Source of the DNA: Chrysochromulina tobinii
Taxonomy: Eukaryota > Haptophyta > Prymnesiales > Chrysochromulinaceae
Assembly: GCA_001275005.1 (NCBI GenBank)
Contig: JWZX01003171.1
Span: 1 to 43,323, forward strand
Direction of reading: 5' to 3'
Length of the DNA stretch: 43,323 nt
Shown: one piece after another, positions 10,075 through 43,323 of the stretch
Layout: each line of letters opens with the position of its first letter
Position numbering within the stretch: position 1 is the first letter of the stretch
Position numbers and translations under genes: made by a program
The notes under the pieces: model-generated
Told to the model about the DNA's origin: nothing
Seen by the model: only the letters and a program-made list of their open reading frames with translations
Databases searched by the model: none

Positions 10075-13000
10075 TCACACGCGCTCGAGGCCACGCGGGA
10101 GGGCGTCCGCCCGCGACGAAGAAGTCAGAGGTGGCCTCCACCGCGAGCGCTGTACCGGGCGCAGCTCAATGTCCATCGGCGCTGTGTCGAGCTCCGACCT
10201 GCCTATTCTGGACTTCGGCGCCGTATCGAGCGCACTCGTGTCGGCGTCGGGCTCGTCGCGCAGCTTGCCCCCGCGCCGCACGGCGCCGCGGCCGCGGCTG
10301 CTCTCGTCGGTGCTCTCGTCGGCGCGCGCGGCGCTTGCGCCGGGGACGTACACGAGGGGCGGCCGGTAGAGATGGAGAAGGAGCGACGAGCAAACGACAG
10401 AGACGGAAGAGAGGCCCATGGCGGCGCCCGCGAACATCGGTGGTAGCTGGATGAGGAGCCACGGGTAAAAGACGCCCGCGGCGAAGGGGATGCCCACGCA
10501 ATTGTACCCCGAAGCCCACAGGAAGTTGATGCGGATGCGTCGCATGACACGCGAGGAGAGGTCGAGAGCAATGCACACGTCCGTCAGATGGCTCTTCATC
10601 AGGACCATATCGGCCGTCTCGATCGCAACGTCCGTGCCCGAGCCGAGGGCAATGCCCACGTTGGCCTGTGCGAGCGCGGGGGCGTCGTTGACGCCATCGC
10701 CCACCATCGCGACCACGTGTCCTAGGCGCTGCAGCTCAGCGAGCTTGGCGGCTTTGCCTTGGGGCTTCACTTCCGCGAGCACTCGATCTCGCGCGATCCC
10801 CGCCTCCCGCCCAATTTGGGCCGCCGTGCGCTCATTGTCGCCCGAGACGAGCCACACCTCGATGTTGCGCCGCTCGAGCCATTGCACGACGGAGAAGGCC
10901 TCGGGCTTGAGAGAGTCGCTCACCTGCATGCAATGGAGGGAGGCCATCAGAGGCCATCAGAGGCCATCAGAGGCCATCAGAGGCCATCAGAGGCCATCAG
11001 AGGCCCTCGGGCTTGAGAGAGTCGCTCACCACGACCAGCCCCACAAGGCGCAGCGCCGCGACGAGCGCCGTCTCGGGCGCCACGGCGACGAGCACCGCCG
11101 TCATCCCTTTGAGCTCATAGCCCGCCATCTCCTCCTCCTGCGCCGCATCGAGCTCGAGGGCATGCGCGTGCATCCACGAGCGCGCGCCCACGAGCACGCG
11201 CGCGCCGTCGACGGTGCAGCTCACCCCATGCCCGGGCGAGGACCGAAAGTCCGAAGGCTCGGTGAGGGACAAGCCCCGCGCCGCAGCGTACCTGGCGAGC
11301 GCCTTGCCGATTGGATGCTCAGAGCCACGCTCGGCAGAGGCCGCGTAGCGCATCAGGCGCGCCTCGGCGGCGCCGCCGTGGTGAGCACTTGCATGCATGC
11401 GCGCCTCGGGCGGCGGCGGCAGCGGCGGCGGCGGCCGATTGCAGCGGCGGCTCCTGCATGCGAGTGTTCACCACGGCGCCTGTAATCTCCTGCGCGGGTG
11501 GCTGCAGCGACGCGGGCGCGGCGGCAGGTAAGCCATCGACCCCCCACACGCTGACGTGCCTTACTCGGAGCTCGCCCGTGGTCAGAGTGCCCGTCTTGTC
11601 GAAGCAGACGGCCGAGACGGTTGCCGCCATCTCGAGCACATCGCCCCCTTTGATTAGGATCCCGTGCCGGGCAGCGACGCCGCCGCCCACCATCACGGCG
11701 GTTGGGGTGGCGAGGCCGAGCGCACACGGGCACGCGACGACGAGCACGGCGCACCCAAACATGAAGGCAAAGAGTTGCGTGTCTTTCAGGCCGCAATGGG
11801 TGAGGTAGTAGTGGGGCAGGTAGCCGAGCACATCGACCGCCGTCCACGTCAGGTAGGTGAGCAAGGCGAGGCCCACCACTACCGGCACAAAGTACGTCGA
11901 GACCCGGTCGGCGAAGGCTTGGATTTTGGGCCGTCGGTGCTGCGCGTCGGCGACGACCTTCATGATCTGCGGGAGGGTCGAGCGAGCCGTTGGAGAAGCA
12001 ATCAGGGAGGCAATCAGGGAGGCCATCAGGCGCCATCAGGCACCATCAGGCGCCATCACCTGCGAGAGGGTCGAGTGCTCCGGCGATCAGGGAGGCAATC
12101 AGAGAGGCAATCAGACGTCATCAGGCGCCATCAGGCGCCATCACCTGCGAGAGGGTCGAGTGCTCCGCGGACGCGAGCACACGCACGAAGAGGACGCCGG
12201 TGCCGTTGATGGTGCCTCCCATCACCTTGTCCCCCGGCGCCTTGGGAACCGGCATGGACTCGCCCGTGAGCATCGCCTCATCGACCGACGAGGCGCCGCG
12301 CAGCACCAGCCCGTCGACTGGCACGTGAGCGCCCGGGAGGACCTTGACGACGTCGTCCTTGGCGAGCGAGCTCACGGTGACCTCGCGCGGCTCCGAGATC
12401 GTGCTCGAGATCGAGATCGTGCTCGAGGTCGAGATCGTGCTCGAGATCGAGATCGTGCTCGAGATTGTGGCTGGCCCGCTCGGGTGCTCGTCGCTGGCTG
12501 GCTCGTCGCTGTAGCTCACCCAGGGGCCCTCGCACAGCAGGGCGGTAGGCGGCTGCAGCGTGAGAAGGGCCGACATGGCTTCAGACGCCTTGCCCCTTGC
12601 CGCTGCCTCGAGAGACTTGCCTGCCAAGATGAAGGTGATGAGCATAGCCGAGGTCTCGAAGCATTGCTTGTTCTCGCCCTGCAAGCCCGCGCTCGCGATC
12701 GAGAGCACTGTGAAGGTGAGCGAGTAAAAGTAGGCTGCCGACGAGCCGAGCGCGACGAGCACGTCCATGTTCGTCGCCCCATGTGAGAGCGCCGCGTACG
12801 CTGAGCGGTAGAAGCGCAGCCCGAAGCCGAACTGGACTGGGGTCGCGAGGATCCAAAGGAGCAGCACGCTCACGTCGAGGCCGGGGACGACGGCCACGGA
12901 GAGCGGCGCTTGGAGAGGCGTCATCGGCAGCACCATCGAGATGACGAACACCGGCACCGAGAAGATGGACGCGCCGAGGAGCTGCCGACGCCACGCGCGC

Positions 13001-14093
13001 GCCTCGGCCCCATAACCGCCCTCGCCTCCGCCTCCGAGGCGCTCGCTTTCTGGGCGGAGCTGCACCTCCGCCTCGTAGCCCAACCGTTGGATGGCCGCGA
13101 CAATCTCGTCGGGGCGCGTGGAGCGCTCATCGTACCTGATGAGGGAGGCCATCAGCATGCAATCAGCATGCAATCAGCATGCAATCTCGTCGGGGCGCGT
13201 GGAGCGCTCATCGTACCTGATCTTGGCCGCCTTCCCCATGAGCGACACCGACGCGCTCAGTACGCCTGGGTGCGCTCGCAGCCCCCGCTCGACGGCGCCG
13301 ACACACGCGGTGCACGTCATGCCCTCGACGGCGACTGTCAGGGTGCGCTCGAACTTGGAGGCCGCCCAGGACGGCGCCCGACCTGAGCCGTTCAACAGCC
13401 CTTCGGATTCGTCCACGGGCCCAGCCTCGTCCGCGGGCCCAGCCTCGCACGCCTCGGCCGGAGTCTTCGACGCCATCGCTGGGAAGACTGGCGGCTGGCG
13501 AGTCCGTGCAGCCCCGCTAGAGGTCGAGAGCGCCGACGCCGCGGCGAGAGGCAAGGCGCCGACGCTCCCGAGCGGTGGCTGCGGCTGCTGCGGCTGCGGC
13601 GGCGGCGGCTGCTGCTGCTGCGGCTGCTGCTGCTGCTGCTGCGACGGCGACAGCGCCTCGCAGCCGAAGCCCGACGGCCTCGACCAGCCGCCACCAGCTC
13701 TGCGACCGTGGCGGTCCCGCGCACGGTCGCCGTCTCGGCGGCGAGGTCGACGCTCGCCGCGAGCACACCCGGCAGTGCCGCGAGCGTCTCCTCCACACGT
13801 CCGGAACAGTGCTCGCAATGCATGCCCGTGACGCGTAGGAGCGTCTGCAGCTGCAAAGATGACGGTGATGACGACGACGGTGAGCCCGCTGCGGGCACCG
13901 CCGGTGCTGCCTGGAACCCGATCGCATTGACGGCGGACACCAACGCGTCCATGGACGCCACGCCCTGGACGGTCGCCGTCTCCGCTTCGAGGTCGACGAC
14001 GACTGTGCCCACACCGGGAAGCGCCCTCAGAGTCTCCTCGACTCGGCCCGAGCAGTGACTGCAGTGCATGCCTTTCACGGAAAGAAGTTGCAT
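10075..14093 (-). CDS. P1B-type copper-transporting ATPase
   Basis: Five exons fit by frame: 14093-13217, 13135-12145, 11966-11472, 11362-11030 and 10923-10075 (about 1180 aa). The start MQLLSVKG at 14093 leads straight into metal-binding domains. There are three HMA domains: GMHCSHCSGRVEE, GMHCEHCSGRVEE and GMTCTACVGAVE, with a Gln/Pro-rich linker before the third. The core shows the actuator loop TGES, the CPC ion path (VVACPCALGLATPT), the phosphorylation site CFDKTGTLT, SEHPIG in the nucleotide domain, MVGDGVNDAPAL, and the last membrane pair with YN and MGLSSVSVV. All catalytic and Cu+-coordinating motifs of a P1B-1 pump are present, so it exports Cu+ from the cytosol at the Golgi, plasma membrane or plastid (location not visible). 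HMA2 contains two +1 frame breaks (about 13686 and 13670); with both corrected, phases match exactly. An Ile/Ser/Thr repeat expands a loop before the TGES segment. Confidence 0.9.
10924..11029 (-). repeat. Copper ATPase intron 4: duplicated exon start plus CTGATGGCCT minisatellite
   Basis: A 106-nt phase-0 intron with GTGAGC donor and GCATGCAG acceptor. Its first 25 nt (GTGAGCGACTCTCTCAAGCC and on) are identical to the first 25 nt of the following exon. Between the two copies are six perfect 10-bp units reading CTGATGGCCT on the sense strand. Removal joins VVVSDSLKPE correctly. Confidence 0.85.
11363..11471 (-). other. Copper ATPase intron 3 with inverted repeat over the donor
   Basis: This 109-nt GT-AG intron (phase 0) is inferred from a frame change between ITGAV and ARLMRYAASAERGSEHP. 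The exon end and donor (GGCGCCGTGGTGAACACT) are nearly reverse-complementary to intron sequence 11369-11389 (AGTGCTCACCACGGCGGCGC on the sense strand), so the donor could be buried in a stem. A GAGGCGCGC direct repeat offers two possible acceptors. Confidence 0.55.
11967..12144 (-). repeat. Copper ATPase intron 2: repeated exon-end copies and CTGATGGCGC units
   Basis: A 178-nt phase-0 intron. The exon ends CTCGACCCTCTCGCAG, the same string recurs inside the intron (12058-12080, sense strand), and a diverged copy CTCGACCCTCCCGCAG forms the acceptor. Each is followed or separated by CTGATGGCGC and CTGATTGCCTCC-type units. Removal joins STLSQ to IMKVVADAQ, as expected for P1B ATPases. Confidence 0.8.
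13136..13216 (-). repeat. Copper ATPase intron 1: 40-bp flanking direct repeat plus CTGATTGCATG units
   Basis: An 81-nt phase-2 intron. A perfect 40-bp direct repeat (13101-13140 and 13182-13221) spans the intron start and the following exon start (GTACGATGAGCGCTCCACGC and on). The centre holds about three units of the form CTGATTGCATG on the sense strand, ending CTCATCAG. Splicing restores KAAKIRYDERSTRPDEIV. Confidence 0.88.
13601..13652. repeat. CAG/GCC-rich trinucleotide tract coding poly-Gln/Pro linker
   Basis: An imperfect CAG/CCG trinucleotide tract on the sense (minus) strand, in frame between HMA2 and HMA3 of the copper ATPase. It encodes alternating Gln and Pro runs, likely a length-variable flexible linker. 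Confidence 0.7.
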
Positions 14094-14413: not shown

Positions 14414-17023
14414 ATGGAGACTCGGGTCGGGAAGGTGCTGCTACTCATCGTGACGGTCGCGGAAGCTGTCAACAACCAATGGCGTATTGTGCATGAGCGA
14501 CGACGCCTGGTCGCACCCATCTCGGAAGAGGCTCAGAATCGCCGCACCCTGGAGCGCTTCACGAAAGGCCATCCCGACAACTCAATCTGCTGGGACCGCG
14601 ACGGCCTCGACGGCTTCATCAACGTGATCGACGCGCACCAGCACCCGGTGCCCTTCGGCGGGCCAGAGGTGCCTTTTTCGCTGTACACCGACTGGTTTAT
14701 CCAGCACGGCACAGTGTTCTCTGTCTTCATGGGCATCGGCCAGAAGATCACCAAGCAGAACGCGTCGGCGCCCGACTGCTGCTACTACATGCACTGCCCG
14801 ACGTACGACTACCCGGTGATCCCGAGCGTCGAGAACGACGAGATCAACGCCATCGCTCGGCTCGAGCACTACTACGGCAAGGTTGACCATAGGCTCCACC
14901 TCATCACCTCCGCCACGTTCCCGAGCCTCCAGAAGAGCGAGGGCGCCAAGGATCAGCTGCTCGCGCTGTGGGCAAAGTACCCGAATACGTTCAAGTGGCT
15001 GGGCGAGATCAACGTATTCAAGCACGCGCTCGCGGGCAACGCGTTCTTCTCCGACTTCACCGGCCCTCGGCTCACCGTCGCACGCGTCGAGTCGGGTGAG
15101 CTCGATGCTCTCTTCAGCGTCATCGGTCCGAAGCAGCCCAACGGCGAGCAGATCCCGGCGGCGACGCTCCACTCGGACATGGGGTGCGACACGTACCACT
15201 TCCTGCCCGGCTCGGGCGATGGCGTCACCCCTCTCAAGTGTGAGGCGTCCGATGAGGACAAGCGTATCGCGCAGAGCAACCATGCTTGGTGGAAGGCGAC
15301 GCTCGGCCCGTGAGTGCTCGCCTTCTGACTGCCTCTGACTGCCTCTGACTGCCTCTGACTGCCTTCTCTGACACGCGCGAGCTCCGGCGACCTCCCACGA
15401 TCTCCCGTGACCTCCCGTGCTCACACGCGCGAGTTCCCGTGCATGCATGCATGCGTGTGTGTGTGTGTGCCCCCCGACCTCTTTCGGGTGTGAACGCAGC
15501 TTCTACTCCGGCTTCTTCGACGAGAACGACTACCCCAAGTCCAACTTCCGAGAGATCATGCACATTCACGTGACGCACGCGATCATGGACCGGTACCCCA
15601 AGGTCAAGTTCGTCTGGGCGCACGTGGGGCTCAGCCAGGAGCTTGCCACGCTGCACCCGGCCGTGCACGCGCGCATCCTCGAAGTCTTCTTTGAGCGATT
15701 CTCGACCAACCTTTGGCTCGATACGTCGTGGGACGTGCTCGCCAAGCAGAACTTTGTGAGAGGTTACGGCGCGTCGAACCCGCCCGCGGCCCCATCGGAG
15801 CCCCGAGATGGGCCGAGATTGCGACCGAGATTGCGACCGAGATTGCGACCGAGATTGTGACCGAGATTGTGACCGGATTGTGCTCGTGCCTCCTCGCCCT
15901 CCACCGACCCCCCCCTCAAGGTTAATTACGACGGCCAGCCGATCGAGAACCTTTGGTCCTCGTGGGCGTCGGAGGACCTCACCGACGACGCTCTCTTCGA
16001 CATGCCCAAGTGGACGAGCGCGCGCGAACGACTCGATAAGATCTGGCAGGCGAAGAAGGGTTCGATCTCGAAGACGGAGAACCTCTGATGACCTCTGATG
16101 ACCTCTGATGACCTCTGATGACCTCTGATGACCTCTGATGACCTCTGATGACCTCTGATGGCCTCTGATGGCCTCTGATGACCTCTGATGACCTCTGATG
16201 ACCTCTGATGACCTCTGATGACCTCTGATGACCTCTGATGACCTCTTGATTGCCTCCTTCATCAGGTTTGATCTCGAAGACGGTCACGACGCTCACGGGA
16301 CCCTCGCACAAGATGGCCGTGCTCCTCGACCTGATGGAGCGATACCCGGATAAGTTCCTCCCCGGAACGGACTACGTGGCCTCCTTCGGCTCTCACGACG
16401 ACTTCCCCGGCTACACGCCCCTCACCGGTGCCCCGAACAACCCCGCGCACAAACGTGAGGATGCGCTCACGGACCGTGTGACTGGCGACGGCTCGGCCGC
16501 GCCGGACCTCGGCCTCGACCACGACCGTGGCGGCTGCCATAAGACGGAGATGACGCACTCCGAGCAGATCACGGATACCTCGTCGCTCAACATGTTCTTC
16601 AACGACGAGCTCTTTAGTGCCATGGTGCTCGGCACGAACTTCTTCCGCGTGGCTGGCCTCGCCACACAGTTCGCCGCCCCACCGCTGTGTCGCAACGACC
16701 CGGACACGCCGTTGCCCACCGCGACCGTCGGGTGGAAGCCGGGGGCAGCCGTCGCCACCACTATGCAGACGCCGACGACCATCTCCACGCTCGGTACGGC
16801 GCCCGCCAGGGTGGACGCCCGCGACGGCGCCGAGACCGCATCGGTTACGTCCTTGGGACGTTTAGGGGTCCCGTCGCAGGCGGTCGTGCCGCTGATGCTC
16901 CTTGCAGTCATGCTCCTCGCTGGCCTAGTGTACAGGGTAGGCGTCACCCAAGGGCAGAAGTCCGCCGTCGATCGAGATTACGCTCTCCATCAAGATGGTG
17001 CGAAGCCGCTCCTCCCGTCTTAA
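14414..17023 (+). CDS. Amidohydrolase-type TIM-barrel metal hydrolase with C-terminal membrane segment
   Basis: Four exons (14414-15309, 15500-15755, 15921-16059, 16266-17023) join with matching phases (2, 0, 1). I start at ATG 14414, whose first residues (VGKVLLLIVTVAEA) look like a signal peptide or anchor. The first metal-ligand strand is INVIDAHQHPVP. Later signatures are KWLGEIN, the His strand KFVWAHVGLS (exon 2), LWLDTSWDVL, and the final Asp/Gly strand LPGTDYVASFG (exon 4). This order fits the Amidohydro-rel (PF04909-like) superfamily, whose members hydrolyse or decarboxylate varied small substrates; the substrate cannot be read from sequence. A hydrophobic helix (PLMLLAVMLLAGLVYRVG) lies close to the C-terminus, suggesting membrane anchoring. 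The stop codon sits at the junction of a 30-bp tandem duplication. Introns carry direct repeats. Confidence 0.78.
15310..15499 (+). repeat. Amidohydrolase intron 1 with CTGACTGCCT units
   Basis: A 190-nt phase-2 intron (GTGAGT donor, GAACGCAG acceptor). Near its 5' end are about four 10-bp units CTGACTGCCT on the sense strand; further on are imperfect CTCCCGTGACC and ACACGCGCGAG repeats and a GT run. Removal joins TLGP to FYSGFF. Confidence 0.75.
15756..15920 (+). repeat. Amidohydrolase intron 2 with GATTGCGACCGA units
   Basis: A 165-nt phase-0 intron (GTGAGA donor, CCCCTCAAG acceptor). It contains about six 12-bp units GATTGCGACCGA/GATTGTGACCGA. Removal joins AKQNF to VNYDGQPIENLW. Confidence 0.7.
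16060..16265 (+). repeat. Amidohydrolase intron 3: duplicated exon start plus 16 CTGATGACCT units
   Basis: A 206-nt phase-1 intron. It starts GTTCGATCTCGAAGACGG, matching the next exon's GTTTGATCTCGAAGACGG at 17 of 18 bases. From 16081 there are 16 contiguous 10-bp units (14 ACCTCTGATG, two GCCTCTGATG), then CTTGATTGCC and a CTTCATCAG acceptor. The same 10-bp unit fills the intron of the minus-strand LRR gene 22 kb away. Confidence 0.88.
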
Positions 17024-37308: not shown

Positions 37309-40139
37309 CTAGATCAGGAGCTCCAGCTGCGCCGCCTCGCCCGCGTCCCGGAGTGCCGCCACCGCCTGCTCGTCGTGCGTCGTGCGGAGCAGACCGTGCG
37401 CGTCCGGCGCGCGCGCCTCGTCCAGATAGTTCTCGCGCACGTCCACCCGCCGCAGTCGCAGTGGCGGCGCCCGAGACGACGCTCCCGCCTCAGCCGCCGC
37501 CCGAGACGACGCTCCCGCCTCAGCCGCCGCCCGAGACGACGCTCCCGCCTCAGCCGCCGCCTGACTCGCCTCGTCGCACGCCTGCCGAAGGCATTCGGCC
37601 AGCAGGGCGGCGCCGCCAGATCCAATCTGATTCTCGGCGAGATCGATCGAGGTGAGAGATCTCGACGCGAGCATGGCGCGCGCGAGAGCATCGAGACCGC
37701 TCAGATCGGGTGCGAGCGGACACACCTTGACTTCGGTGCCATCCCAGTGCGTGACTACTACGGCGCGCCCCAAATGGGCGACGCGCGCGCCGACCTCGAT
37801 AGGGCCACCCTCCACCGCGCTCGCCGGCAGGTAGCCGCTCTCGCCGTCGCCGAGATTGTTCGAGCTCAGTCGAAGGCAAGTGAGGCTCGAGCAACGCGCG
37901 AGAGCGGCCGCCACGGCCGAGGCGACCGCGGGTCCATCCACCAGGTTGGCGTCATCCACAGACCTGATGAGAGAGGTCATCAGAGGTCATCAGAGGTCAT
38001 CAGAGGTCATCAGAGGTCATCAGGGGCCATCCGCCAGGTTGGCGTCATCCACACACATGGACAGGTTGAGTTCCGTCAATGAGGGCGTCGTCTCGAGCGC
38101 GCGCGCGATCGCCTCGACGCCAACAGCCCCCATACCCGTCTCGGATAGGTCGAGGGAGCGCAGCCGCGGCAACTCCTCGAGCGCCGTCGCGAGCGCGACG
38201 GCTCCCTCCGGGCCGATGGGATTGTGCGCCACATCGAGGCTCGTGAGGGCCGTGAAATGGGGTAGCGCCGCGCTGAGCGCCGTCGCCTCTGCCGCCGTCC
38301 AGGCCAACGTGCTGAACGAGAGGCTCGTCGCGCTGACCGACACGGCGCCAAAAAACGTGCGGTACACGCGGCTCACAACGGCCGCGTCGGCAGGGTCGCT
38401 AAAGGCCTTGGCCTCTCGGAAGAGGGCGTCGGCGGCGTCGGGCAGAAGCGGCGGGGGCCGGTGCGTCGAACAAACGTGCTCGAGCCGCCGGCTCGGCTTC
38501 CAATAGCCTCCGGCATACGCGGCCGATGCGTCGCGGCCGGCGTCCGGCGACCGATGTCGAGGCGGCGCGCATGGCTCTTGACCACGGCACTCGTGGCCGC
38601 CTCGCAGAAGCAAAAGCCAGAGGCGTCGTAGGTGGCGCCGCTGAATCCGGCCGGGACGGCGCTCTGCATCCAGACGACTGTGTGGGCGTGGCCGCACCAG
38701 AGGTCGGTCGAGTCGCGCAGCCCACGGACGAAGAGGAGCTCTTCGGGCAGGGTCCGTGGCGGCTGGAAGAGGGAGGCAAAGTCCCAAAAGAGGCCGAAAT
38801 CGGGAGGTTCCGTCAAGCCGGCGCCCTCAAAGGCGGCGGTGAGGGGCGAGCGTGAGATGAGGGATCGCTCGGCCTCGAAATTGGGCAGCAGGTAGGTCTG
38901 TGCCACGTCGGCGACGGCGTCCAGATGGAACCGATCCGGGTCGCAATGCCACGTCGCTAGCCACTTGTACGACAGGATGACGAAGAGCAGCCCGAAGTCG
39001 GCGCCGAGAGCGGTGGCAAGGCGGCGGAGCGTCGGCGCACCGAGGAAGGCCTCAGGCGGCAGATCCTGCCGGCGCTCGATGCGCCCGCCAGATCGGCGCA
39101 GATTCACGAGCCATCGGCCCGAGATCGGCGAGATTGCACCCGATTCGACCGTCTCGAGCAGCGACTCGACTGCGAAGTAGCGGTCGACTTGGCTCAAGGC
39201 CGCCGTGGTGTACGAGCGTTTCAGTGGGTGCGGGATGGAATAGCGCTCGTTGAGAGTGAAGCTGCGGCTCAGCGCGTGCCCTCGCGTAGCCTCCGACGCA
39301 GCCGCTGTGCTCGTGGACTTGTCAGCTGCTCCTGTGGAATCCTCAGGAACGCTCTCTGAGAATCGAATCTCTGAGAATCCAGATGTGGAATCCGCAGGAA
39401 TCTCGTCGAATCGAATCTCTGAGAATCCAATCTCGTCGACCTCCTCGTACGTCTCGGGCACGCCGAGGCCGGAGGAGGGACCGACGTCGATCTCGAGCAG
39501 CATGCCCGCGTACCCATCCTCGGGCACCATCACGATCAGTTCGGAGCCCTCCCATTCCACGGTGAACTCTTCTCCCGGCACACAACCGTCGGGCACCACG
39601 GCTTCAATGGTCGTCCACGTCGTCGCAGAGGGCTCTGAGGCCGTGGCGTCCAACCCGTTCGATGCTGAGGACTCTGAGGCCGAGGTCGACTCGATGATGG
39701 CGGCGGCGAGTTCGCGCGCGAAATTCCGGGTCTCTGTGCGGTTGAGCTTGAGCGGAGGCTTTGGTAGAGGCACGGCGAGCAGCAAGTCGTCGTCCTCCTC
39801 CTCGCATCTCCCATCCGTGCCCAGGAGCGCATTCGCGACGGCCCGCAGCGGCCAGCCCGGCGCGTGTCGAGCATCGTTGAGGACCTTGGAGAGTGCTGCC
39901 GCCAGCTCGTTCAGCTCACCCGCACTGGGCCTTGTGGCGGTGGAAGGCGCAGCAGCGGTGGGCGGAGCCCTGCCGTCTGCTTGTGCCTTCAGGTGGCTGC
40001 CGATGAACCCGAGCCGTTCGGCGGTTGGCACAGGCAGCGATGCTTGGACTGCCGCCGTCAGAGCGGTCTCTAGACTGGCGCGGATATACTGCTCCTCAAA
40101 GTACGGCGGCAGCGTCTGCTCGTCGAGCGCTTCTAGCAT
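37309..40139 (-). CDS. LSxxW-module leucine-rich-repeat protein
   Basis: Two exons, 40139-38057 and 37963-37309, join in phase 2 over a 93-nt intron. The first in-frame ATG is 40139 (MLEALDEQTLPPYFE). Residues 1-300 are poorly conserved, with EGSELIVMVPEDG and a repeated GFSEIRF acidic block. The module follows: GGRIERRQDLPPEAF, TLRRLATALGADFGLLFVIL-SYKWL, FGLFWDFASLFQPPRT, WCGHAHTVVWMQS, YDASGFCFCEAA and SHARRLDIG. It is the same module as in the LRR gene at 5454 and the U-box gene. Near 38545 one base is out of frame before the conserved HRPPPLLPDAADALF segment. LRRs of ribonuclease-inhibitor type follow (LTSLDVAHNPIGPEGAVAL, RSLDLSETGMGAVGVEAIA, LTSIDLAENQIG). Three in-frame 30-bp repeats add an AEAGASSRAA spacer. 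Probable ligand-sensing scaffold (inference). Confidence 0.75.
37471..37560. repeat. Three perfect 30-bp in-frame repeats
   Basis: The unit CCGAGACGACGCTCCCGCCT-CAGCCGCCGC occurs at 37471-37500 (first base differs at the boundary), 37501-37530 and 37531-37560. It encodes AEAGASSRAA units near the end of the LRR protein. Confidence 0.9.
37964..38056 (-). repeat. LRR-gene intron: duplicated exon start plus CTGATGACCT units
   Basis: The intron starts GTGTGTGGATGACGCCAACC and the next exon starts GTCTGTGGATGACGCCAACC; the similarity runs for about 34 nt. In between are about five 10-bp units CTGATGACCT on the sense strand and a CTCATCAG acceptor. Splicing gives LNLSMSVDDANLVDGP. Confidence 0.88.
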
Positions 40140-41177: not shown

Positions 41178-43323
41178 ATGCGGTACTCTGCGCCGTACAT
41201 GTACGACGCGCCCAATGCCTTCGCCGCGCAGCCCACGCATCTGCGCGGCATCGCACCGACGGTTTTGAAGCTGCAGCTCACGCCGCTCGGGCTTCCATTG
41301 CCGCACATCGCCGGACCTCCATCGCTCGGCGAGCCCGCGCTGCCACGAATCTTCAACACGTTTAACCCGTCGATCGCGCCGGCGCCGCACTCGCTTCGTC
41401 GACTTTGCCCTCGCTGCGCATACGTAGTGGCCTTGCGCGCCGAAGCGCTGCACCAGTGCAACGCCTCGTCGCCGCTATTGAAGCCGACCAGCAGAGGCAA
41501 GGCCATCGCAACGGGCGCCTACTTCAAGGGCACGGCGCTCGCCGTGCTTGACGCGTCGCTGGAAGTACTCGCATGGACGTGGATGCTGCCGCGGCCCGAG
41601 GATCAGGTCTCGATTGCGCACAACGGCAGCCGCTGGTTTGTGCCTCCGGGCGTGCACGACGGCTTCGCGACACCGCCGTGGGGCAAGCCCGCATACGATA
41701 CGAGGCTGCTCCTCTTGGATGGGGAGCACCTGTTCGCGACGACGAACTGCAAGGCGTGCACATTCATGGTCGCCAAGCTCGAGGTGACCGCCGAGCCGAC
41801 GGCGAGCCATGCATCCTCGCCCAGCATGCAAGCGCTCACCACGGCGGGCCCTGCGAGCCATGCATCCTCGCCCAGCATGCAAGCGCTCACCACGGCGGGC
41901 CCTGCGAGCCATGCATCCTCGCCCAGCATGCAAGCGCTCACCACGGCGGGCCCTGCGAGCCTCGCCCAGCATGCAAGCGCTCACCACGGCGGGCCCTGCG
42001 AGCCATGCCTCCTCGCCCAGCATGCAAGCGCTCACCACGGCGCCGTGTCCCTTTCCCACAGGTGACCGCCGAGCCGACGGCGAGCGGCACGCTCACGGCT
42101 CTGCGCGTGTGGGCGCCCTACCGTCTCCGTGGCTTTGAGAAATGGCTTCAGGGACGGAACCAAGCGCTCTTTGGCGGGCCGAGCGCGGCGCCGATGGAGC
42201 GGCACGAGGGGGAGGGGATGGCGGCGGAGGTAACGACGCCGTCGCCGGCCGGGGTCCGCACGGCACCGTCGGCGACGAAGGCGAGCGCGGTGGTCCGCGG
42301 ATCGCCTTCAGCGCTCCTGATTCAACCGTGGCTGGGGCTGGTGGCCTCGATGGGTGTTCCTCTGTTCCGACGGCAGTACCACGCCCAATGCTATCCGCAG
42401 CAGGCTCAATGGTGGGGCTCGACCACGGTAGAGGCGATGGCTGCCAAACTAGGCAAGGCGAGGGCGCACCGCCTGTGGGAAACGTCGACGTGTGGGCCGA
42501 CACCGATTGGAGCACCTCTGAACGCGACCGTCCTTGAGCCGCGCCGCTGGGCGCTCGAGCACGGCGTGGATGACACGGTGAGTGCGCGCCGCCTCGCCCG
42601 CCAGCTGCTCCGCGCGCACCGCGCGGAGCGCGCGGGCTGGCACAATGCGAGCGGCGCGCTGATCGGTCTTGCCAACTTGGGAAACCAGACAGTAAACCAG
42701 ACAGGGTGGGGGCCTAGCGCGTTCTCGTCCTCGTCTTCGTCCTCGTCCTCGTCGTCCTCTTCCTCGTCGGCGGTGGGCGAGGGGTCGATCGCGCGGGGTC
42801 CTCGAACGCTCGATAGGACGCTCAACGGCCATCCATTGCGCTTCGGAGAGATCGCACTGCTCTTCAACCACACGGGCCTCGAGCGACGGCGAAGGACCTT
42901 CGACGTTGGGGGCTCTCGTGTGTCTCCAACGGCCAATCTCGTTCTCATCTCGCGCCCTCGAGGCTCGGCCATGGGAGACGGCGGCGGCGAGGGCGGCGGC
43001 GAGGGCGGCGGCGAGGGCGGCGGCAGGGGCGGCGGCAGGGGCGGCGGCAGGGGCGGCGGCGAGTGCGAGGCGCTGCTCGGGATCGGGCACACGCACCGCG
43101 GCACCGGCCATCTTGAACGCCGAATGCTTCGTGCAGACGCGGCGCGTCGAGAAGACTATTCCGCAGGCCTCATCTCCGGCAATGGTCGTCATGCGATGCG
43201 GCGGCGCAAGGGTGGCGGCAAAGGCGGCGGCCAGGGCGGCGGCAAGGGCGGCGGCGGCGGCCTGGGCAGCGGCAAGGGCGGCGGCGGCGGCAAGGGGGGC
43301 GGCGGCGGCAATGGCGGGGGGGG
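41178..43323 (+). CDS. Uncharacterised algal protein (probable glycan-related family), 3' truncated by window end
   Basis: Exon 1 is 41178-41783 and exon 2 starts at 42062; the frame then stays open to the end of the window, so the gene is incomplete. Exon 1 encodes FNTFNPSIAPAPHSL, YVVALRAEALHQCN, AYFKGTALAVLDASLEVLAW, VPPGVHDGFA, YDTRLLLLDGEHLFAT and CTFMVAKLEV. Exon 2 continues WAPYRLRGFEKWLQGRN, several NxT/S sites (NATV, NASG, NQTV, NHTG), VGGSRVSPTANLVLISRP and LLGIGHTHRGTGH. I recall this order (NPS..AP, LAVLD, a repeated strand pattern, then an LLG-GH-H-GTG motif) from uncharacterised secretory proteins of haptophytes and stramenopiles, beta-propeller-like and possibly linked to glycan metabolism. 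Long Gly-rich tracts (42970-43065, 43200-43323) disrupt the later part and may be intronic or unreal coding sequence. Confidence 0.65.
41784..42061 (+). repeat. Intron with duplicated exon start and 51-bp minisatellite
   Basis: The intron starts GTGACCGCCGAGCCGACGGC-GAGC (41784-41807), identical to the start of the next exon (42062-42085). It contains five copies of a 51-bp unit beginning GAGCCATGCATCCTCGCCCA (41804, 41855, 41906, a 9-bp-shorter copy at 41957, a partial copy at 41999). The acceptor is CTTTCCCACAG. The intron is 278 nt, phase 0, open in frame, so gene finders may read it as coding. Confidence 0.87.
42965..43323. repeat. GGC-rich trinucleotide tracts at the window end
   Basis: Imperfect GGCGGCGRG and GGCGGCRAG arrays (42970-43065 and 43200-43320) run to the end of the window. 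They resemble the GGCGGCGGCAAGG array in the LRR gene at 7382-7600 and are probably unstable; the terminal G run may also mark a scaffold edge. Confidence 0.7.

What the first reader, a model, noticed from the sequence alone, without database searches (positions are those of the whole stretch)
16060..16265. A shared 10-bp intron minisatellite, CTGAYNNCCT, always on the sense strand, that repeats the branch-point consensus
The introns of the copper ATPase (minus strand), amidohydrolase (plus), minus-strand LRR gene and GNAT gene are filled with units such as CTGATGGCCT, CTGATGACCT, CTGACTGCCT and CTGATTGCATG. The unit CTGATGACCT is identical in two unrelated genes 22 kb apart on opposite strands, and in each case it reads CTGAY on the transcript strand. 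CTGAY fits the yUnAy branch-point consensus, and the CCT supplies pyrimidines. These introns therefore look like arrays of branch sites (up to 16), perhaps selected for splicing or spreading as a splice-competent repeat family.
Basis: partly seen in the sequence, partly recalled or inferred. Interest (0 to 1): 0.9.

Follow-up and report, generated by a model that had tools for sequence, protein, structure and literature searches.

The report
Introns born with duplicated exon ends
The odd repeats are the filling of young introns that appear to have been inserted into genes as a small copied splice cassette together with a duplicated piece of the neighbouring exon, so that the protein stays unchanged.

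Summary
The repeat is real, abundant and on the sense strand wherever I could assign the strand. But the array is not the main story. Intron 16060-16265 starts with an 18-nt copy of the start of the next exon ("X") and ends with a shared 3' cassette (CTGAYNNCCTCYCTCATCAG type: branch-site fit, pyrimidines, AG). The same plan (X of 13-43 nt starting at GT, filler, cassette, AG|X) recurs in 33 curated introns. The genome holds 671 strict cassettes followed by GT, and 446 of a second family. Homologous proteins show presence/absence: a relative lacks intron 16060, others lack ATPase intron 10924, one carries a family-2 insert where the window is empty. These look like introner-like insertions that take their 5' splice site from a long target duplication and bring branch site and 3' splice site. 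The 10-bp arrays look like tandem growth of the branch-site unit used as spacer: X and filler lengths trade off, few introns being under 70 nt. A row of 16 working branch points is not supported. RNA data are lacking; the insertion chemistry is inferred.

The parts
16060..16265 (+). Family-1 intron of the amidohydrolase-like gene, the finding itself; 206 nt
   Evidence: GT..AG; removal restores ..IWQAKKGLISKTVTTLTGP.., of the same length as in 7 of the 8 homologues printed (P0051 differs); unspliced reading hits stops at once
16060..16077 (+). X copy inside the intron (supplies the 5' splice site)
   Evidence: 17 of 18 nt identical to 16266-16283
16085..16244 (+). 16 tandem CTGATGRCCT units
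16246..16265 (+). 3' cassette, variant form: branch-site fit, pyrimidines, CATCAG
   Evidence: sequence; the strict cassette is counted
16266..16283 (+). X copy in the downstream exon
10924..11029 (-). Family-1 type intron of the copper ATPase (3' end CATGCAG); X 11005-11029 = exon 10899-10923, 25 of 25 nt
   Evidence: presence/absence in homologues
13136..13216 (-). Family-1 intron of the copper ATPase with CTGATTGCATG units; X 13182-13216 = exon 13101-13135, 35 of 35 nt
12060..12144 (-). Tandemly doubled X + CTGAY filler in the copper ATPase (nested case, left out of the curated set)
37964..38056 (-). Family-1 intron of the LRR-like gene; X 38023-38056 vs exon 37930-37963, 31 of 34 nt
41784..42061 (+). 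Family-2 intron, 51-bp array; X 41784-41807 = exon 42062-42085, 24 of 24 nt
15310..15499 (+). Amidohydrolase-like gene, intron with four CTGACTGCCT units (15325-15364); I saw no X
   Evidence: no row in the X scan
15126..15145 (+). Empty site in the window: homologue P0004 carries a family-2-like insert here with this stretch repeated in another frame

Best explanation
The repeat-filled introns are introner-like insertions. A short 3' splice cassette (branch-site fit, pyrimidine stretch, CAG) was placed into a coding exon, mostly at a G|GT site, and 13-43 nt of target beginning with that GT were duplicated on both sides. The upstream copy of X provides the 5' splice site; the cassette provides the branch site and the 3' splice site; splicing removes the insert plus one X, so the mRNA is unchanged. 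Shown: the structure, the genome-wide recurrence of two cassette families, and, from protein sequences, presence/absence between near relatives with unchanged protein. Inferred: that splicing happens as drawn; that the insertion step is repair or templated synthesis at a staggered break (short sequence overlaps join X to the filler) rather than transposase cutting; that the 10-bp arrays grew in place by tandem duplication of the branch-site unit and serve mainly as spacer, keeping introns at about 70 nt or more.
For: X duplication: in 26 fetched family-1 3' ends, the own downstream exon aligned to the intron better than all 25 other exons in 17 of 26, 14 of the 17 starting at exon base 1. In 223 kb (window plus 18 contig starts not chosen for arrays), duplications starting at YAG|GT: 10 of 521 sites, against 44 of 10,600 for the other 15 dinucleotides before GT, the next highest rate being TC with 9 of 1265. 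Recurrence: 1007 cassettes, 671 followed by GT, reversed control 0; family 2: 822 cores, 446 followed by CACAGGT within 5-30 nt, control 0. Gain: P0049, whose longest contig is 27.5 kb and which reads through intron 15756-15920, so taken as genomic, has no intron at 16060, nor have P0044, P0045, P0009, P0011, P0050 and P0014. P0052 and P0055 begin with MQVSDSL, the reading of the ATPase intron end plus exon, whereas P0053 and P0054 run through the site without an insert. P0004 carries the mirror case with a family-2-like insert. Length: X versus body Spearman -0.56, P 6e-4; 3 of 33 introns under 70 nt against 8.2 permuted, P 5e-4. Overlap at the X end: 3.2 nt against 0.8 in 18 testable of 32 introns; 2.1 against 0.9 using other introns only, 13 testable.
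Against: 9 of 26 fetched ends fail the own-exon test, two of them ties and two missing by one point. 336 of 1007 strict cassettes are not followed by GT; only 1 is followed directly by CTGA, so direct tandem runs do not explain them. The empty and filled sites are read from proteins, not DNA; P0053 and P0054 could be transcripts. A looser boundary count showed no special place for AG|GT (16 against a median of 9, many pairs higher). The overlap at the X end can also come from tandem growth that took in the X end (seen in L099 and at 41784). Intron 15310-15499 has units but no X. No RNA evidence of splicing.
Confidence: 0.75

Rival explanations
1. The arrays are rows of branch points kept by selection for splicing.
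For: CTGAY fits yUnAy; the A is the least changed position (229 of 232) and units rarely hold AG on the sense strand (28 of 232 against 228 of 232 antisense).
Against: Sister introns have few YTRAY (median 3); unit positions T2 and T5 change in 17 and 26 of 232; bodies are long where X is short.
Confidence: 0.12
2. A DNA-transposon introner of the usual kind, with a transposase that makes target duplications.
For: Family-1 cassette has inverted ends CTGAT(G)..(C)ATCAG; introners that take the 5' site from the duplication are described (PMC9860276).
Against: X varies from 13 to 43 nt, against the 3-9 bp named for introners in PMC9860276; I see no such inverted ends in family 2; the 5' end of the body is not fixed (YTRAN within 1 nt of X in 10 of 32).
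Confidence: 0.2
3. Target-primed copying of excised intron RNA: the 3' end of a spliced intron is reverse-transcribed into the exon at a nick.
For: 3' end exactly at AG, variable 5' end, variable-length duplication and short overlap at the 5' junction; two different cassettes use the same plan.
Against: The scan itself required AG|GT, and selection for a working intron would also fix AG and GT; no reverse transcriptase or RNA data examined.
Confidence: 0.15
4. Plain tandem duplication of an exon piece holding AGGT (Rogers/Hellsten model).
For: Duplicated exon start at AG|GT.
Against: Between the two X copies lies a cassette found hundreds of times in the genome.
Confidence: 0.03
5. Old introns that merely picked up minisatellites.
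For: Intron 15310-15499 has four units and no X seen; 9 of 26 ends fail the X test.
Against: Relatives lack intron 16060 altogether; shared 3' ends.
Confidence: 0.1

Closest known systems
Introners (Gozashti 2022, PMC9860276; read: abstract, results part 1 of 2, sections on DNA-based propagation, low-complexity filtering and TSD/TIR calling)
   Same: Many similar introns in one genome, insertion into exons, mostly unchanged mRNA, in some families the 5' splice site taken from the target duplication (their Fig. 2B class, from the legend)
   Different: Duplication 13-43 nt rather than the 3-9 bp named there; similarity only towards the 3' end; minisatellite body. Their pipeline removed low-complexity families, so family 1 would probably have been dropped
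Newly gained Daphnia introns (PMC4202315; passages read)
   Same: Direct repeat of an exon end at the far end of the intron, laid to staggered breaks; internal repeats common in young introns (55 of 90)
   Different: Exon-intron repeats of 4-12 bp; the passages read describe no shared cassette
Amoebophrya introner elements (PMC7789003; passages read)
   Same: Repeated introns with direct repeats at the borders
   Different: Direct repeats 3-5 nt, inverted repeats 8-20 nt, mostly non-canonical introns; here GT-AG
Intron gain by tandem duplication, including the potato RdRp case (PMC4974935, PMC3443670; passages read)
   Same: Duplicated exon sequence supplies the donor; in the potato case putative branch site and 3' site are inherited from an intron
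   Different: Those reuse local sequence; here a cassette shared across the genome lies between the copies

Membership tests
Introner | Groups of similar introns in different genes of one genome | tested here: met
   671 and 446 strict 3' ends followed by GT; that all lie in introns was not checked
[quoted passage not shown]
   3' end shared; the 5' end is the locus-specific X
Introner | Creates an intron by insertion into an exon | tested here: met
   Presence/absence at 16060, 10924 and 15126, read from proteins
Introner | Short target duplication (3-9 bp) where present | tested here: not met
   13-43 nt in 33 curated introns
Introner | Terminal inverted repeats (in some families only) | tested here: inconclusive
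   CTGAT(G)..(C)ATCAG in family 1; none seen by eye in three family-2 introns
Introner | Spliced in vivo | not testable with these tools
   No RNA reads at hand
Tandem-duplication intron | Intron body consists of duplicated local exon | tested here: not met
   Only X is exonic in most bodies printed; the rest is a shared cassette and array
DSB-repair intron (Daphnia type) | Flanking direct repeat as from a staggered break | tested here: met
   X repeats, longer than the reported 4-12 bp
DSB-repair intron (Daphnia type) | Insert without a shared family sequence | tested here: not met
   Two shared cassettes; that this feature is defining is my own reading

The most novel reading that the evidence does not exclude
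Excised introns are themselves the mobile unit: the free 3' end of spliced intron RNA, whatever its sequence, is copied into exon breaks by target-primed synthesis. New introns therefore inherit only the branch site and 3' splice site and build their 5' splice site from a long duplicated exon start, a host-level intron-making route without a dedicated transposon.
Probability: 0.15. Interest if true: 0.92.

Novelty: new variant of a known kind. Interest (0 to 1): 0.72.

Why it matters
How introns are gained is a long-standing question with few lineages caught in the act. Here an unnamed eukaryote shows two different cassettes entering exons by one plan, with long exon-start duplications, low-complexity bodies and presence/absence between near relatives. 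A survey that demands similarity at both intron ends, or drops low-complexity families, would tend to miss it. The trade-off between X length and filler length also gives a handle on minimum intron size.

Tried and rejected
A first direct-repeat finder was swamped by the arrays. Two tables of all 256 boundary dinucleotide pairs on direct repeats did not single out AG|GT: 4 against a top of 8 with a strict filter, 16 against a median of 9 and a top of 79 with a loose one; protein repeats and a boundary tolerance of several bases blur them, and the test replaced them. A first upstream-match test on 54 3' ends gave a score of 12 or more in 23 of 54 against 2 of 54 with a random other exon, but part of these are array or tandem matches. 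Rfam gave 0 matches at gathering score in the window. Viral contigs: 44 stretches with one dimer match each, 0 matches of the family-1 end, 1 of family 2; a viral carrier is not supported. A mis-specified dimer pattern found nothing. The organism was not identified: the rRNA search did not complete, and the protein hits carry no species name.

Rows dropped: of 46 scan rows, 13 were left out of the curated 33 (4 ankyrin, 1 antisense image, 1 nested ATPase, 1 L013, 2 L032, 3 L037, 1 L038); for L044 the nearer tandem copy (63 nt) was used instead of the listed 126. Of the 33, 5 are in the window, 15 in the 10-kb loci (10 of these from contig C33, which was picked because it is rich in arrays) and 13 in stretches fetched for the cassette. 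L044 was dropped (32 introns). An earlier count said 15 of 17 alignments start at exon base 1; the number is 14.

Full report
What was claimed and what is there. The repeat is there: 36 matches in the window against 3.0 expected, none of 100 shuffles reaching that, and 16.6 tandem copies at 16081-16246. The genome in which the window lies (53.15 Mb in 2253 contigs, no name, no relatives held) contains 2256 + 2258 dimers of the unit against 1 + 0 for the reversed pattern.

The intron itself. Splicing 16060-16265 out of the plus-strand gene gives ..IWQAKKGLISKTVTTLTGPSHKM.., of the same length there as P0049, P0044, P0045, P0009, P0011, P0050 and P0014; P0051, the eighth printed, differs. Reading on through the 5' splice site meets stops at once. 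The gene is called amidohydrolase-like because some more distant homologues carry PF04909 (the name of that Pfam family is recalled).

The missed feature. The first 18 nt of this intron repeat the first 18 nt of the next exon (17 of 18). The same holds for the ATPase introns 10924-11029 (25 of 25) and 13136-13216 (35 of 35), the LRR-like gene 37964-38056 (31 of 34) and intron 41784-42061 (24 of 24), which has a quite different 51-bp array. I call the repeated piece X. In each case X begins with the GT of the 5' splice site, and the other copy follows the AG of the 3' splice site.

Is X more than chance? Of 26 small stretches fetched for their 3' motif (L095-L120), the own downstream exon aligned to the intron better than all 25 other exons in 17; 14 of these alignments begin at exon base 1. 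The motif used to pick them contains AGGT, so the GT is given but the duplication is not. Nine of the 26 fail, two by a tie and two by one point. In 223 kb (window plus 18 contig starts not chosen for arrays) duplications starting at YAG|GT were found at 10 of 521 sites; with any of the other 15 dinucleotides before GT, at 44 of 10,600; the next highest rate is TC, 9 of 1265. Two earlier, looser tables did not single out AG|GT.

Two cassettes. Family 1 ends in CTGAYNNCCTCYCTCATCAG: 1007 copies, 671 followed by GT, none of the reversed control. Only one of the others is followed directly by CTGA; what follows the rest was not worked out. Family 2 has the core CATGCAAGNGCTCANCACG, 822 copies, 446 of which are followed within 5-30 nt by CACAGGT, none of the control. 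Both hold a YTNAY branch-site fit and a pyrimidine stretch before AG in the copies printed. In 32 curated introns a YTNAY lies in the last 45 nt of all 32, with A at -16 to -18 in 27 and at -23 to -28 in five; in the following exon stretch it occurs in 7 of 32. Since 25 of the 32 end in the family-1 CATCAG, the fixed distance partly reflects how they were found.

Presence and absence. P0049, whose longest contig is 27.5 kb, reads through intron 15756-15920 and so is taken as genomic DNA; at 16060 it has no insert and an unchanged length. For the ATPase intron, P0052 and P0055 begin MQVSDSL, which is the translation of the intron end ATGCAG plus exon, while P0053 and P0054, identical to the window over the aligned part, run straight through. 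P0004, 99% identical over the 65% of the query aligned, breaks off after KQPNG, reads MRPCLACTRSPRRPFPSSQ and then the same exon in another frame, VRSSPTAS; the window's family-2 array reads PACKRSPRRAL in one frame. So the window is empty at 15126 where a relative is filled. These are protein readings; the DNA behind them was not at hand.

Strand. Arrays lie in the sense of the gene for the copper ATPase, the amidohydrolase-like gene and four loci with a Pfam match next to the array (TPR, Cupin_8, GCV_T, VWA), 6 of 6; 16 of the 20 neighbouring ORFs scanned in those and other array loci had no Pfam match, and the VWA match is only just above its cut-off. The LRR-like gene agrees by eye. A likely reason: the unit holds AG in 28 of 232 copies on the sense strand but in 228 of 232 on the other, so an antisense array would offer many false 3' splice sites. 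This is inference.

What the array does. In 33 curated introns X is 13-43 nt (median 23) and total length has a median of 82 nt. Short X goes with long body (Spearman -0.56, P 6e-4); 3 introns are shorter than 70 nt against 8.2 in permutations (P 5e-4). YTRAY per body has a median of 3. I read the array as filler grown by tandem duplication from the branch-site unit. In L099 and at 41784 the repeat has taken in the end of X, which speaks for growth in place. The conserved A (229 of 232, among units with at most two mismatches at eight positions) leaves room for some selection on branch sites.

How it gets in. The left end of the filler is ragged (YTRAN within 1 nt of X in 10 of 32), the right end is AG by the way the set was made, X varies in length, and X tends to overlap the filler by a few bases (3.2 against 0.8 nt, 18 testable; 2.1 against 0.9 when only other introns are used, 13 testable). 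That fits templated repair at a staggered break, or target-primed copying of intron RNA, better than a transposase with fixed ends. Survival of working introns only would also fix AG and GT, so the case stays open. The base before the first X is G in 28 of 33, and position +3 is a purine in 31 of 33.

Place among known things. Introners are introns made by mobile elements; in PMC9860276 (results part 1) duplications are given as 3-9 bp in some families, 49 of 130 assessed families show them, and some take the 5' splice site from the duplication. That survey required similarity near both ends and removed low-complexity families. Daphnia neointrons have exon-intron repeats of 4-12 bp (PMC4202315, passages); Amoebophrya introners 3-5 nt (PMC7789003, passages); a survey of 213 introns gives repeats of 4-30 bp, mean 11.4, at 71-100% similarity (PMC11782384, passages), so long repeats near splice sites are not unheard of. 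Fungal twin introns have no short duplications (PMC8469720, passages). Mirusvirus introns peak at about 80 bp with a CTGAC branch-site consensus in one order (PMC12768974, passages), but no viral contig scanned had the family-1 end. Seven library searches listed, by title and abstract start, no paper on introns with long exon-start duplications and a shared minisatellite cassette; most subscription papers are not held, and I read only the parts named. I file it as a new variant of the introner kind, not as a strict member: both-ends similarity and the short duplication were tested and not met.

Noticed in passing
window 11357-11407 (-): A family-2-like piece sits in frame in the ATPase exon (EAR-MHASAHHGGAA-EAR, GAGGCGCGC on both sides) and a near-identical stretch is in P0053: apparently an insertion kept as coding sequence.
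   Followed up: partly
G000, rows listed: Family-2 copies keep the core and mostly CCCCACAG while the pyrimidine stretch between differs in length and sequence from copy to copy.
   Followed up: no
window 15813-15880: 12-bp CGAGATTGYGAC array in intron 15756-15920; the relative P0049 seems to have fewer units, read through in frame.
   Followed up: partly
L044:4365-4491, L032:2735-2810, L104: Tandem copies of X plus cassette as a unit of about 56-75 nt, with several AG|GT in a row.
   Followed up: no
L097, L105: Intron bodies that also hold copies of upstream or deeper exon stretches, as if built by repeated template switches.
   Followed up: no
family-1 cassette: CTGATG..CATCAG (5 nt in the CTGATT form) is an inverted repeat around the cassette.
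   Followed up: partly
L121:4496-4517 (IMGVR_UViG_3300027760_000958): One family-2 core at the end of a 4.5-kb contig classed as viral; perhaps misclassed eukaryote DNA.
   Followed up: no
L031, L032 (G000:C33): A 16-kb contig rich in family-1 arrays and 3' ends.
   Followed up: no
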